A stretch of DNA of 64,000 nucleotides from Mycobacterium kubicae (lineage in GTDB: Bacteria > Actinomycetota > Actinomycetes > Mycobacteriales > Mycobacteriaceae). The notes under the pieces were generated by a model. It was not told the origin of the DNA, did not search any database, and saw nothing but the letters and a program-made list of their open reading frames with translations. Each line of letters starts with the position of its first letter. The first letter of the stretch is position 1. Shown here one piece after another: positions 49,376 through 62,664 of this stretch. The stretch spans positions 1-64,000 of the forward strand of contig NZ_CP065047.1 in the NCBI RefSeq assembly GCF_015689175.1, read 5' to 3'. The translations under genes were made by a program, and so were the position numbers.

Positions 49376-49467
49376 TCGTATACATCGATACGACGCGATC
49401 GCAAGAGAATTGCTACAAGAACGTATATCCGACAAGTCGTCGGCCCCGCTGTGTACTATCCGCGTAT
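49376..49467. promoter_or_regulatory. CGTAT half-sites between whiB5 and the XRE regulator
   Basis: The inverted repeat TCGTAT-acatcg-ATACGA occupies 49376-49393. Further CGTAT copies are at 49422-49426 and 49463-49467, and the sequence ACGTATATTC appears again inside the regulator gene. They cluster in the 144-base divergent promoter region, so binding by the XRE regulator (autoregulation) is a reasonable inference. Confidence 0.5.
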
Positions 49468-49481
49468 GGCCGGAGGCTGCG

Positions 49482-50285
49482 GTGAGCCGTGAGTCGGCCG
49501 GCGCGGCGATCCGCGCGTTGCGGGAGTCGCGGGATTGGTCGCTAGCCGATCTGTCGGCCGCCACCGGCGTCAGCATCATGGGCCTGAGCTTCCTGGAACG
49601 CGGCACCCGCAAACCGCACAAAAGCACAGTTCAAAAGGTTGAGAACGGACTAGGGCTGCCGCCCGGCACCTATTCACGGCTGCTGGTCGCCGCCGATCCG
49701 GACGCGGAACTAGCCCGCCTGATCACCGCCCAACCACCGGAGCCCGCTGCGGTCAGGCGGACCGGAGCAGTCGTCGTCGACCGTCACAGCGACACCGACG
49801 TCCTTGAAGGCTATGCCGAAGCACAGCTCGATGCGCTCCGTTCGGTCATCGAAAGACTGCCCGCGACGACATCAAACGAATATGAGACGTATATTCTGTC
49901 TGTGATCGCGCAGTGCGTGAAGGCGGAGATGCTGGCCGCCAGCTCCTGGCGAGTGGCGGTCAACGCCGGCACTGACTCGACCGATCGGTTGATGCAGCAT
50001 TTGGAGGCGCTGGAAGCGACGCGCGGCGCCTTGCTGGAGCGGATGCCGGCCAGCCTGAGCGCTCGGTTCGACCGCGCCTGCGCACACTCGCCGTTGCCCG
50101 AAGCGGTCATCGCCGCGCTTGTCGGTGTTGGTGGCGACGAATTGTGGGACATCCGAAATCGTGGTGCCATTCCTCCCAATGCGCTGCCGCGGATCCGCGC
50201 CTTCACCGAAGCAATGGAGGCGGCGGAGACGGGCATCGACACCCGAGCAACAGACGGTGAGGGGAGCGATGAGTCCAGAAGTTGA
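49482..50285 (+). CDS. XRE-family transcriptional regulator (Rv0023-type)
   Basis: 267 residues from GTG 49482 (SRESAGAAIRALRESRDWSL). The helix-turn-helix covers about residues 8-62 (LADLSAATGVSIMGLSFLER, GTRKPHKSTVQKVENGLGLP). The C-terminal 200 residues are Ala/Glu-rich and alpha-helical, possibly for dimerisation or ligand binding. The same gene is next to whiB5 in M. tuberculosis. The end overlaps the NlpC/P60 gene by 17 bases, suggesting one transcript. Confidence 0.92.
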   Translation: MSRESAGAAIRALRESRDWSLADLSAATGVSIMGLSFLERGTRKPHKSTVQKVENGLGLPPGTYSRLLVAADPDAELARLITAQPPEPAAVRRTGAVVVDRHSDTDVLEGYAEAQLDALRSVIERLPATTSNEYETYILSVIAQCVKAEMLAASSWRVAVNAGTDSTDRLMQHLEALEATRGALLERMPASLSARFDRACAHSPLPEAVIAALVGVGGDELWDIRNRGAIPPNALPRIRAFTEAMEAAETGIDTRATDGEGSDESRS

Positions 50286-51108
50286 GTTGTTGAGCCGCGC
50301 CCATGAGATGTTCGCCGGCGCGGGACGCCCGCCCGTCGTCGACGGGGACAACGAACGCTTCCGTCAGTCTCCCCATACTGCGTCCAATCTTGTTGTTGCC
50401 CAGGGCAGTTACCACCAGGCCGCGCAGCGCAGCCACGCGGCCCTGTTGTCGGCCGCGCGAACCGACGCCGCTGCCAGCGCCATCCTCAGCGCGGCGCACC
50501 ACGACCACGAGACAGCCCGCGACCGGACCGGGCGCGTCGTCCAAGAGGCCCGCGCCGACGCGAGCCTTACTCCCACAACGCCCTTAGGTCAGCGGGAAGC
50601 AATGCGCCGACAGGCAGCGCGACTGCGCTCCCAACGCGCTCATGTCTTGTTGGCGCGCCACCGGGCGCGACGGCACCTGGCCGCCTTGCGGGCGCTGCGC
50701 TACCGCGGCACCCGGCACCATCGGCGTGCGTCGGCGTCGTCTTTGGCGGCTCTGCGACTGCCCACAGCAAACGGCCGGGCCGGGATTGCCGTGCGCGCGG
50801 CGTTGTCACGGTTGGGTCGCCCCTATGTCTGGGGCGCGACCGGACCGAACCAATTCGACTGTTCCGGCCTGGTCCAGTGGTCCTACGCGCAGGCCGGTGT
50901 CCATCTGGATCGGACGACCTATCAACAGATCAACGACGGGATTCCGGTGCCTCGCTCGCAGGTGCGGCCCGGTGATCTCGTGTTTCCACACGCTGGTCAT
51001 GTGCAACTGGCCATCGGCAACAACATGGTGGTCGAAGCGCCGTATTCGGGCGCCACCGTCCGCATCAGTCCATTGGGCGGCAACGTGCAGATCCGTCGCC
51101 CACTGTAA
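50269..51108 (+). CDS. NlpC/P60 hydrolase without signal peptide (Rv0024-type)
   Basis: 279 residues from ATG 50269. The first 150 residues are helical and Arg/Ala-rich (SYHQAAQRSHAALLSAARTD), resembling ESX-exported helical domains; no signal peptide or lipobox is seen. The C-terminal NlpC/P60 domain has the catalytic Cys in NQFDCSGLVQWSYAQAG, His in FPHAGHVQLAIG, and a third polar residue in MVVEAP. It would cut peptidoglycan stem peptides if it reached the wall. Export through ESX is inferred from its lack of a signal and its neighbours. Confidence 0.92.
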   Translation: MSPEVELLSRAHEMFAGAGRPPVVDGDNERFRQSPHTASNLVVAQGSYHQAAQRSHAALLSAARTDAAASAILSAAHHDHETARDRTGRVVQEARADASLTPTTPLGQREAMRRQAARLRSQRAHVLLARHRARRHLAALRALRYRGTRHHRRASASSLAALRLPTANGRAGIAVRAALSRLGRPYVWGATGPNQFDCSGLVQWSYAQAGVHLDRTTYQQINDGIPVPRSQVRPGDLVFPHAGHVQLAIGNNMVVEAPYSGATVRISPLGGNVQIRRPL

Positions 51109-51121
51109 GAAGGTTGAACTC

Positions 51122-61074: not shown

Positions 61075-61153
61075 GTCGACAGCTAGCGTGGCCGATTTTA
61101 GACTCAGACCGCTCGTTTGCATGTCAAGCTGAGCAGGCAAGTGGGAGGCACAT

Positions 61154-61465
61154 ATGACTGGTTTCTTTGAGATGGTGCCCGGCGCCGTCGACATGTCGGC
61201 GGCTGCGGAGGCCGGCATCAGCGAGGAAATGGCGGCGACGACGGCGGCCGGCGCCGCGGCGCTCACCGGCGTCCTGCCCATGGCGGCCGACACCGACTCG
61301 ATCGAATTCGCGGCCGCACTCAACGCCGCCGGGGCGGCCTACCTGGCCACGGCCGCCGAGCACGTCGGTCAACGCGCCGGCTTTTCCGGGGCCCAAGGCC
61401 TGGCATCTGCGACCACAGTTGCGACCGACGGCCTGAACGCCGCGGCGACCGCCCTCGGCGGCTAG
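61154..61465 (+). CDS. PE family protein (PE36-like)
   Basis: 103 residues from ATG 61154 with GGGAGG upstream. A PE-type two-helix domain: MTGFFEMVPGAVDMSAAAEA, GISEEMAATTAAGAAALTGV, SIEFAAALNAAGAAYLATAA. The usual Pro-Glu motif is not seen, as in the ESX-2 PE36. It precedes the PPE gene by 8 bases, so they should form a PE/PPE heterodimer, probably exported by this locus or an ESX system elsewhere. Confidence 0.87.
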   Translation: MTGFFEMVPGAVDMSAAAEAGISEEMAATTAAGAAALTGVLPMAADTDSIEFAAALNAAGAAYLATAAEHVGQRAGFSGAQGLASATTVATDGLNAAATALGG

Positions 61466-61473
61466 GAGACGGC

Positions 61474-62664
61474 ATGCCCGACCCCAGGTGGACCGGTCCG
61501 CCCGAAGTCGTCGCCGCGATCTTCGAGGCCGGATCACCTGCATCGGTCATCGCCAACAACACCGTCTGGGTCACCGAAACCGCCAACAAGGAACTGTCGG
61601 CTGGCCTCTCGGCGGTCAATACGTTGGCCACCGCCACGCAGTGGCAAGGCGTGAGCGCGCTCGCGTCGATGGTGACCGCCACGGGACTCAACGCCGGACT
61701 CCAGACGTTGGTGGGCTGGACGGCCGAGAAGATCAGCGTCACTCAAGCCGCCGTCGAAGCCTTTGCCGTCGCTCGGTCGGCGGTCATTCCCTCCCTCGTC
61801 TCGCAGACCAACCGCGACGAGTGGGCGGTCCTCAACGCCACCAACTTCCTGGGCATCAACACCCCAGCGATCGTCGAGCGGGACTGTGAGTATTTCGGCG
61901 AGCACTGGCCGCACAACTCCAGCGTCGGCTGGACGTACTCCGGTGCGCTGAGCGCGCTCGTCGCGGCGTTGGCCGTTCCCCCGCCGGTCGCGCCCATGGG
62001 TGCGTCGCCGGCCGCCCCCGCAGCGGCGGCGCAAGCCGTCGCCCAGGCGGCGGGACAGTCGGGCATGAACGGCGCGATGCAGGCATCGACTCAGGCCGCG
62101 CAGACCACATCCGCGCCTTCGGAAGCGACGGGCCAGCTCAGTTCGCTGATGCAGCAGCCGATGCAGATGGTGTCAGGTGTGACCGAACCGCTGAAAGAGA
62201 TGGCGCAGGCGCCGATGCAGGCGATGCAGGGCTTCACCAGCCTGCCGCAAAGCATGATGCAGGCGATGGGTGGCATGTTCGGGTCTGCCGGAGCCTCGAA
62301 TGCGGCGACGGTGACTGCGGCTGCCGAGCCGGTCGTGGCCGCGGGCAGCGTTGCCGGAGGCGCGGCCTCGGGTGGGGGTGCGGGCAGTGTCGGGAGCTTC
62401 CCCGGCGCGGGATTGACCAGTTACACCCGTCCCACCAGCAGCTTCGAGTCAGAGGCGGGCGGACGGCCGACCAGTGTGCGCGCGGGGGTCCTGAACGCCG
62501 CCGAGGTGCGCGGACCGGTCGCCTCTAACGCGATGGGCGGCGCGCCGATGCCGATGTCACCGGCCGGCATGCTCGCTCGGGGCGCCGGATCCGAATCCGA
62601 GAAGGATGCGGCGGTGGCGCGGGCTCGCGTTGTGGTCCAAGGGGAACCCACCGACCCGCGCTAG
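61474..62664 (+). CDS. PPE family protein (PPE69-like)
   Basis: 396 residues from ATG 61474 (MPDPRWTGPPEVVAAIFEAG), with GGAGA between the PE stop and the start. The PPE domain (about 1-180) has ATQWQGVSALASMVTATGLN and NRDEWAVLNATNFLGINTPA. The rest is a Gln/Met/Ala-rich linker (PMQMVSGVTEPLKEMAQAPM) ending TSYTRPTSSFESEAGGRPTS. PPE69 from ESX-2, as I remember it, has the same N-terminus MPDP and the same closing motif. An ESX substrate likely acts with the PE protein. Confidence 0.9.
   Translation: MPDPRWTGPPEVVAAIFEAGSPASVIANNTVWVTETANKELSAGLSAVNTLATATQWQGVSALASMVTATGLNAGLQTLVGWTAEKISVTQAAVEAFAVARSAVIPSLVSQTNRDEWAVLNATNFLGINTPAIVERDCEYFGEHWPHNSSVGWTYSGALSALVAALAVPPPVAPMGASPAAPAAAAQAVAQAAGQSGMNGAMQASTQAAQTTSAPSEATGQLSSLMQQPMQMVSGVTEPLKEMAQAPMQAMQGFTSLPQSMMQAMGGMFGSAGASNAATVTAAAEPVVAAGSVAGGAASGGGAGSVGSFPGAGLTSYTRPTSSFESEAGGRPTSVRAGVLNAAEVRGPVASNAMGGAPMPMSPAGMLARGAGSESEKDAAVARARVVVQGEPTDPR

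What the first reader, a model, noticed from the sequence alone, without database searches (positions are those of the whole stretch)
49376..62664. A second, compact ESX-2-like secretion locus continuing the Rv0022c-Rv0030 cluster
WhiB5, XRE regulator, NlpC/P60, two DUF4226, EspC-like, EspD/H-like, Rv0029- and Rv0030-type genes run straight into eccB, a full-length eccC, a PE and a PPE gene in one orientation with gaps of mostly under 100 bases. EccB, EccC, PE and PPE match ESX-2 proteins from memory. In M. tuberculosis, as I recall, the same left half ends at Rv0030 and is followed by a transposase remnant (Rv0031), so those orphan genes may be the stump of a lost secretion system. The locus here lacks EccD, EccE, MycP and EsxA/B-type genes inside the window, so it may borrow these from ESX-2 or be partial.
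Basis: partly seen in the sequence, partly recalled or inferred. Interest (0 to 1): 0.88.

Follow-up and report, generated by a model that had tools for sequence, protein, structure and literature searches.

The report
Secretion operon split across replication origin
In this mycobacterium one protein-secretion machine (ESX-2) is encoded in two halves on opposite sides of the chromosome's replication origin, torn apart by a single DNA flip, and this suggests that a group of unexplained genes in tuberculosis-type bacteria (Rv0022c-Rv0030) is a detached piece of the same machine.

Summary
The gene run is real: WhiB5, XRE, NlpC/P60, two DUF4226, EspC-like, DUF2694, Rv0029-type and Rv0030-type genes run into eccB, eccC, PE and PPE. 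It is not a second ESX-2. Of seven eccB genes in the genome this is the only ESX-2 one. The rest of ESX-2 (esxD, esxC, espG2, Rv3888c-like, eccD2, mycP2, eccE2, eccA2) lies 21-30 kb from the far end of the contig, next to ESX-1, on the other strand and without eccB or eccC.

Five genomes read from whiB5 to eccA2, and a M. paragordonae plasmid, carry both parts as one locus. In 11 of 11 unsplit or I-type genomes read there, Rv0036c-Rv0037c sits beside pcnA; here it follows the PPE gene. One origin-spanning inversion, cut between PPE and esxD and between Rv0036c and Rv3906c, explains the junctions. Both halves show purifying selection.

Tuberculosis-type species keep Rv0022c-Rv0030 without a core beside it; their ESX-2 core is a second, deeply separate lineage across the origin. 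The split was reported for M. paragordonae in 2019 and read as lateral transfer. The inversion and the left-arm link I found in no paper searched.

The parts
48921..49337 (-). whiB5 (Rv0022c type), divergent regulator at the head of the locus
   Evidence: PF02467; same place and strand in the unsplit loci G320, G282, G339, G186 and in L019-L021, L023; the whiB/XRE pair is turned in G262
49410..50285 (+). XRE regulator (Rv0023 type; start perhaps 49482)
   Evidence: PF01381; weak match to EspM, 26.5 bits against a cut-off of 550
50269..51108 (+). NlpC/P60 protein (Rv0024 type)
   Evidence: PF00877 4.8e-22
51122..51484 (+). small DUF4226 protein (Rv0025 type)
   Evidence: PF10774 2e-38
51574..53007 (+). 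large DUF4226 protein (Rv0026 type) with a conserved C-terminal region
   Evidence: PF10774 1.1e-37; 24-sequence alignment
53084..53383 (+). EspC-family protein (Rv0027 type)
   Evidence: PF10824 8.2e-29 (on the longer frame from 52961)
53380..53685 (+). DUF2694 protein (Rv0028 type), EspH-like
   Evidence: PF10904; 30% over 76 aa, E=3e-8, to the 182-aa protein of this genome's ESX-1 locus, which I call EspH from its place (recalled)
53911..55062 (+). Rv0029-type protein, DUF5631/DUF5632, EspK-like chaperone fold inferred
   Evidence: Pfam; 110 bits to 5IMU; 5IMU is Rv3899c and resembles EspK (PMC9811218, passage)
55096..55425 (+). DUF2710 protein (Rv0030 type)
   Evidence: PF10921 2.9e-56
55469..56983 (+). 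eccB2
   Evidence: TIGR03919; groups with ESX-2 EccB in the tree
56986..61074 (+). eccC2, full length
   Evidence: TIGR03924 and TIGR03925 over cut-off
61154..61465 (+). PE gene (PE36 type)
   Evidence: PF00934, 22.6 bits against a cut-off of 22
61474..62664 (+). PPE gene (PPE69 type)
   Evidence: PF00823 1.1e-17
62665..62882 (.). right-hand inversion junction, 218 bp; unsplit genomes have esxD here. The partner junction is C1:5936952-5937221 (270 bp, between esxD and the Rv3906c-type gene)
62883..64000 (-). Rv0036c- and Rv0037c-type genes, on the pcnA side of the origin in unsplit genomes (the second runs off the window)

Best explanation
The cluster is the left half of this genome's only ESX-2 type VII secretion system. 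In the older arrangement one locus (24 kb in G320 and G186) runs: divergent whiB5; XRE, NlpC/P60, DUF4226, DUF4226, EspC-like, DUF2694, Rv0029, Rv0030; then eccB, eccC, PE, PPE, esxD, esxC, espG2, Rv3888c-type ATPase, eccD, mycP, eccE, eccA. One inversion that spans the replication origin, cut between PPE and esxD on the right and between Rv0036c and Rv3906c on the left, carried esxD-eccA2 to the other side (C1:5927863-5936951, minus strand, beside ESX-1) and brought Rv0036c-Rv0037c to the right. Most likely working (inferred): EccB, C, D, E and MycP2 from both loci assemble into one membrane channel; EspG2 and EccA2 serve PE/PPE and Esx substrates; the left arm adds regulators (WhiB5, XRE), a wall hydrolase (NlpC/P60) and an Esp-type substrate/chaperone set (EspC-like, EspH-like DUF2694, EspK-like Rv0029). 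The right half now lies downstream of pcnA-Rv3906c on the same strand, so the halves probably have separate promoters. Shown: gene content, arrangement, inversion junctions, common ancestry of the halves, selection. Inferred: assembly and the roles of single genes.
For: Seven EccB in the genome, one of ESX-2 type; EccD2, MycP2 and the Esx pair beside ESX-1 without eccB or eccC. Rv0036/Rv0037 on the pcnA side in 11 of 11 unsplit or I-type genomes read there; after PPE in 10 of 10 split-type loci that reach that far; esxD beside the Rv3906c-type gene in 5 of 5 split genomes read there. Flanks inverted as predicted: 11 genes, Rv0036 and Rv0037 among them, collinear in opposite orientation; three genes beyond eccA2 at 76-89% on the opposite strand. 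Left-half and right-half trees both nest the split type in the same place among the unsplit ones. With the Rv0030-eccB junction and eccD on one contig, 25 genomes whole, 21 with eccD far on the opposite strand, 1 far on the same strand. With lineage set by EccD alone, eccB is joined to Rv0030 in 66 of 66 B and 0 of 46 A genomes that had both rows. pN/pS 0.03-0.43 (left half with its arm) and 0.03-0.32 (right half).
Against: No expression or secretion data. No repeat was found at the junctions, so the cause of the flip is unknown. ESX-1 lies between eccA2 and the gltB-type gene here but is missing there in G320, so that side also changed by other events. dS is near 1 in many pairs, so pN/pS is rough. 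Only five split genomes were read at both ends. Other regulators or distant esp genes were not looked for. PMC10714837 saw ESX-2 genes rise without whiB5 (passage).
Confidence: 0.93

Rival explanations
1. A second, compact ESX-2-like system that borrows EccD, EccE, MycP and Esx from a complete ESX-2.
For: eccB, eccC, PE and PPE stand apart from the other ESX-2 genes.
Against: No other ESX-2 eccB or eccC in the genome; the half beside ESX-1 has none; both halves share one history in the trees.
Confidence: 0.02
2. eccB-PPE came in by lateral transfer after loss of the original genes, as PMC6616192 proposed for M. paragordonae.
For: In M. paragordonae this part is much less like M. tuberculosis than the other part, as the authors say (section read).
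Against: The part beside Rv0030 sits where unsplit genomes have it; it is the other half that moved, with flanks swapped as an inversion demands. Against window EccB/EccD, listed tuberculosis-type proteins are about 64-67%/52-56% identical and unsplit-type ones about 65-81%/59-79%, so low likeness to M. tuberculosis affects both halves and reflects a different core lineage.
Confidence: 0.03
3. The right half was moved by transposition or cut-and-paste recombination rather than by inversion.
For: Clean junctions without repeats.
Against: Transposition would not move Rv0036c-Rv0037c and nine further genes to the other side of the origin in inverted order.
Confidence: 0.03
4. In tuberculosis-type species the left arm and the ESX-2 core are halves of one ancestral locus cut by their own inversion at Rv0030, rather than left-overs after the old core was replaced. 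(A rival on the evolution of those species only.)
For: I-type genomes (G022, G016, G309, G150) have the A-type core right beside Rv0030, though inverted; the tuberculosis-type layout also follows from one inversion cut at Rv0030.
Against: It needs two inversions sharing exactly the same left cut; core and housekeeping trees conflict, which needs replacement or differential loss anyway.
Confidence: 0.35

Closest known systems
ESX-2 of M. tuberculosis (Rv3884c-Rv3895c) and M. kansasii
   Different: There the core is whole, of the other deep lineage (G222: 66% EccB, 52% EccD identity to this one), and apart from Rv0022c-Rv0030.
Split ESX-2 of M. paragordonae (PMC6616192)
   Same: Same split: eight genes beside ESX-1, eccB2-eccC2-PE-PPE elsewhere. 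The genome taken to be this species (G228: its 144,093-bp contig equals the length of NZ_CP025548.1) shows it.
   Different: The paper reads it as lateral transfer and, in the passages and section I saw, does not mention the Rv0022c-Rv0030 genes or an inversion.
ESX-2-like system of plasmid pMpg-2 (NZ_CP025548.1)
   Same: DUF4226, EspC-type, DUF2694, DUF2710 joined to eccB-eccC-PE-PPE-WXG100-EspG-eccD-mycosin-eccE-eccA.
   Different: Plasmid-borne, outside both chromosomal lineages in the EccB+EccC tree, EccC in two pieces, no WhiB5/XRE pair in the stretch read.
M. avium complex ESX-2 with transposed EccB2-EccC2 (PMC4791881)
   Same: ESX-2 also in two places (passage).
   Different: In G224, G046 and G230 the cut lies elsewhere (between eccC and PE), in the other core lineage; that these belong to the same event as in the paper is my guess.

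Membership tests
ESX-2 type VII secretion system | EccB and EccC group with ESX-2, not with ESX-1, 3, 4 or 5 | tested here: met
   EccB tree: 14 ESX-2 rows held together at 100/99, own ESX-1/3/4/5 and two further EccB outside; EccB+EccC tree with ESX-1/3/5 as outgroup
ESX-2 type VII secretion system | Full component set EccA-E, MycP, EspG, Esx pair, PE/PPE in one genome | tested here: met
   All found, in two loci
ESX-2 type VII secretion system | One contiguous locus next to ESX-1 | tested here: not met
   Right half only beside ESX-1; left half at 49-63 kb. This is a variant arrangement, not loss of a component
ESX-2 type VII secretion system | Secretes EsxC/EsxD or PE/PPE proteins | not testable with these tools
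   needs an experiment
Other plasmid ESX systems (pCBMA213_2, pJCM12687) | Gene order eccC-PE-PPE-esx-esx-espG-eccB and no left arm | tested here: not met
   The window's order differs and it has the left arm; the stretches of the two plasmids read list no left-arm DUF (by annotation only)

The most novel reading that the evidence does not exclude
Rv0022c-Rv0030, largely unexplained in tuberculosis-type bacteria, is the detached left arm of ESX-2 and still works with it: regulators, a wall hydrolase, Esp-type substrates and an EspK-like chaperone. ESX-2 is then a two-locus system throughout the M. tuberculosis / M. avium / M. gordonae clade, and its core exists as two deep lineages exchanged at one place while the left arm and flanks were inherited vertically.
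Probability: 0.6. Interest if true: 0.75.

Novelty: new variant of a known kind. Interest (0 to 1): 0.64.

Why it matters
It gives a family and a likely role to a conserved gene cluster that M. tuberculosis shares but that is mostly unexplained, and a simple reason why WhiB5 was reported to control ESX-2 (Casonato 2012, as cited in PMC7020754, PMC10714837 and PMC3796483; passages seen, the paper itself not): WhiB5 sits at the head of the ancestral ESX-2 locus. It offers another reading of a split published as lateral transfer. It also shows a secretion operon cut in two near the replication origin with both halves kept under selection, and a core swapped between two lineages within conserved flanks. 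ESX-2 and ESX-4 are called little known (PMC3796483, passage); a missing left arm could be one reason why ESX-2 substrates have been hard to find (speculation).

Tried and rejected
Rejected: a second ESX-2 copy. Rejected: a hybrid of two ESX-2 lineages in this genome (left half of one, right half of the other), because both halves nest in lineage B at the same place. Rejected: the right half lost, because it is intact at 5.93 Mb. Rejected: lateral gain of eccB-PPE.

Led nowhere: relics of the B core between Rv0030 and Rv0036c in 6 tuberculosis-type genomes, and of the A core at the left junction in 5 split genomes; the only matches were to PPE (two PPE-like genes standing there in G026; and, in a further 5 right junctions of split genomes, a PPE piece in G045). 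Repeats at the junctions: longest shared stretch 11 bases, shuffles reach 13. The M. tuberculosis genome did not turn up: among 396 genus genomes none matched P0002 (which I take, from its 1258 members, for the M. tuberculosis EccB2 cluster) better than 95%. The link rests on G105: GyrB with 17 differences in 673 (my count) to 8s7k, a M. tuberculosis structure by recall; its Rv3899c-like protein with 11 differences in 222 (my count) to 5IMU; and on G222 (M. kansasii). Structure prediction of the Rv0026-type protein was never accepted.

Method faults: a gyrB DNA tree was wrong because 7 of 30 loci were reversed; after turning them it was still noisy and was replaced by a four-protein tree. The row T_G072 is mislabelled: its eccB is beside Rv0030, so it is of the unsplit lineage; the branch holding all W and J rows (with it, 30 rows) has support 0.285 in the EccB+EccC tree, against 1.0 in the right-half tree and 97/95. 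In the EccB-only tree the order of plasmid, A and B is not resolved. In the left-outer tree some rows apparently took another mycosin for mycP1, so I do not use it. The groups of the AU tests were named after seeing the trees. In one search the split into 82 B-like and 67 others used 'joined' as one criterion, so the absence of joined loci among the 67 means nothing; one search repeats the count with lineage set by EccD alone. At least one of the 67 (G111) looks like B by EccD. Match tables were cut by the tool, so the counts use only rows listed (149, 149 and 144 genomes).
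Full report
What is there. The window begins the main contig (C1, 5,958,133 bp; window = C1:1-64000). Eleven of the 12 gaps are under 100 bases; whiB5 is divergent. EccC is full length with both curated models over cut-off. After the PPE gene come, on the minus strand, Rv0036c- and Rv0037c-type genes. Rv numbers and the names pcnA, gltB, gltD and EspH are recalled; what the calls show is that the same genes recur between genomes.

The rest of the system. The genome has EccB at seven places, EccD at eight and mycosin at seven. 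The ESX-2 place beside ESX-1, C1:5,927,863-5,936,951, holds eccA2, eccE2, mycP2, eccD2, an Rv3888c-like ATPase, espG2, esxC and esxD, all on the minus strand, with Pfam support for each type (AAA/EccA1 N-domain, EccE, subtilase, EccD and YukD, CbiA/ParA, EspG, WXG100 twice). It lacks eccB, eccC, PE and PPE; next to esxD comes a 169-aa gene (Rv3906c by length, recalled), then pcnA. The search tool reported a TGA inside mycP2, but the frame called is open over 536 residues. The window's EccB and EccC are therefore the only ESX-2 ones, and the EccB tree places them in ESX-2 (the other EccB of this genome are 33-39% identical).

Unsplit loci. Loci from whiB5 to eccA2 were read in G320, G262, G282, G339 and G186 (its PPE was not called). 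In G262 the whiB/XRE pair is turned; G168 is whole from Rv0029 on but the genes left of that are others. The locus spans 24 kb in G320 and G186. G282 has the contig length of Ca. M. methanotrophicum CP097320. M. fragae (L020) and Mycobacterium sp. SM1 (L021) run unbroken at least to espG2. Plasmid NZ_CP025548.1 of M. paragordonae, outside both chromosomal lineages in the EccB+EccC tree, also has DUF4226, EspC-type, DUF2694 and DUF2710 genes joined to its ESX-2 core, while two other plasmid ESX systems, by their annotation, do not. So genes of the Rv0026-Rv0030 kind look like an original arm of ESX-2. Two MAG contigs (L027, L028) have the left arm running from Rv0029 straight into eccA2, an internal deletion scar.

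The inversion. In 11 of 11 unsplit or I-type genomes read on the pcnA side (G320, G262, G282, G022, G175, G016, G012, G280, G168, G339, G060) the Rv0036c/Rv0037c genes are there, in 10 of 11 with at most one called gene between them and the Rv3906c-type gene or pcnA (in G282 only the Rv0037 gene was called; G339 has six genes between). In split genomes they follow PPE (10 of 10 loci that reach that far: window, G064, G045, G143, G110, G228, L016, L024, L025, L026; G064 has four and G228 one inserted gene, G045 a second PPE-like gene); in tuberculosis-type genomes they follow Rv0030 (6 of 6: G161, G222, G026, G105, G224, G338; G026 and G105 with inserted genes). L017 and L022 end before that point. 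esxD lies beside the Rv3906c-type gene in 5 of 5 split genomes read there (own, G064, G045, G143, G110). Flipping one segment around the origin, with cuts PPE|esxD and Rv0036c|Rv3906c, turns the unsplit order into the split order at all junctions. Eleven genes on the left of G320, Rv0036 and Rv0037 among them, are collinear and inverted with the right flank of G161, and three genes beyond eccA2 (gltB, gltD and one more, 76-89%) match this genome's 5.890-5.898 Mb on the opposite strand. No repeat marks the cuts.

Counts. Over 346 genus genomes, 186 had an Rv0030-family match at E<=0.001, 183 an EccB match at E<=1e-130 and 148 an EccD match at E<=1e-100. Among the 149 genomes whose EccB row was listed, eccB was joined to Rv0030 in 74. 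Of those with eccD on the same contig, 25 were whole, 21 had eccD far away on the opposite strand (this genome included) and one far away on the same strand (G175); three more whole ones lacked an Rv0030 row. With the lineage set by EccD identity alone (B at 59% or more, A at 56% or less), eccB was joined to Rv0030 in 66 of 66 B genomes and 0 of 46 A genomes that had both rows listed (22 on the same contig, 24 on another); 15 B and 17 A genomes lacked a row.

Two core lineages. They have an ESX-2 core 64-67% (EccB) and 52-55% (EccD) identical to this one, although their left-arm and flank genes are mostly as close as, or closer than, those of unsplit species. EccB+EccC and right-half trees give a deep split: lineage A (T and I types) and lineage B (unsplit and split types). 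A housekeeping tree (DnaN, RecF, GyrB, GyrA) instead mixes T and split species: T_G230, T_G338, T_G046, T_G224 with W_G143 and W_G110 at 97% (the node joining all T and W is weaker, 61%). AU tests reject T+I as a clade (p 1.7e-32), T alone (0.005) and split types alone (0.014) on housekeeping proteins, and reject T+split as a clade on the right-half core (3e-4) (groups named after seeing the trees). Where well supported, flank genes group T with split species too (100 and 98%). So the core was replaced, or sorted by differential loss, inside conserved flanks. Six of 183 genomes had two EccB matches in range, of which one is explained by a plasmid (G228) and one by an inverted duplicate that may be an assembly fault (G244); the others were not followed.

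Selection. pN/pS is 0.03-0.43 for the left half with its arm and 0.03-0.32 for the right half in pairs of split genomes, and 0.14-0.49 for left-arm genes in pairs of tuberculosis-type genomes (dS is high, so these are rough). The left arm is kept where it has no core beside it.

What the left arm may do. DUF2694 is like the EspH-type protein of this genome's ESX-1 (30% over 76 aa). The Rv0029-type protein matches 5IMU, which PMC9811218 identifies as Rv3899c, related in fold to the EspB chaperone EspK, naming Rv0029 as another (passage). WhiB5 is reported to control ESX-2 and ESX-4 (Casonato 2012, cited in passages of PMC7020754, PMC10714837 and PMC3796483; the first paper was not read). PMC10714837 saw ESX-2 genes rise without whiB5, which speaks against a simple link. 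A substrate/chaperone and regulation module is the best inference.

Known and new. PMC6616192 (passages, section 9) reported the split in M. paragordonae and proposed lateral transfer; PMC4791881 (passages) noted transposed EccB2-EccC2 in the M. avium complex, which here may be the cut between eccC and PE seen in lineage A (G224, G046, G230). Ten paper searches over an open-access library showed no paper that joins Rv0022c-Rv0030 to ESX-2 as one locus or describes the inversion; I saw listings, the named passages and one section only, so papers in the listings that I did not open and subscription papers may hold it.

The distance of the right half from the contig end, the size and number of whole loci, the identities to 5IMU and GyrB and the number of moved flank genes were corrected; a circular count was replaced and two stretches not annotated before were read.

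Noticed in passing
G000 C1:5245017-5261144 (L013, L057): A further ESX locus with eccB, eccD, mycosin, a PPE-like gene and a weak WXG100 pair, whose EccC lies in several frames with a TGA; possibly decaying.
   Followed up: no
G000 C1:4003889-4022130 (L012, L058): A further ESX locus (eccB, eccC, mycosin) with two EccD genes on opposite strands and two WXG100 genes nearby.
   Followed up: no
G224, G046, G230, G338 (L078-L080, L097-L100, L107-L109): In these A-type genomes the ESX-2 core is itself in two places; in G224, G046 and G230 the cut is between eccC and PE, possibly another origin-spanning inversion.
   Followed up: partly
L027, L028: Left arm runs from Rv0029 directly into eccA2 (89-90% identical to this genome's): the ESX-2 core deleted with both ends kept.
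   Followed up: no
G120, G203: B-type EccD2 (79-80%) present but no EccB match at the threshold; perhaps species that lost the left half, as PMC6616192 says of M. gordonae.
   Followed up: no
G000 C1:3216845-3217135 (L191): A second DUF5631 protein gene, perhaps the Rv2082 type (a guess), with no ESX gene called in the 3.3-kb stretch held.
   Followed up: no
G175 C1:45607 and C1:1674757 (L083, L084): B-type ESX-2 split between eccC and PE, the second part 1.6 Mb away on the same strand: an independent break.
   Followed up: partly
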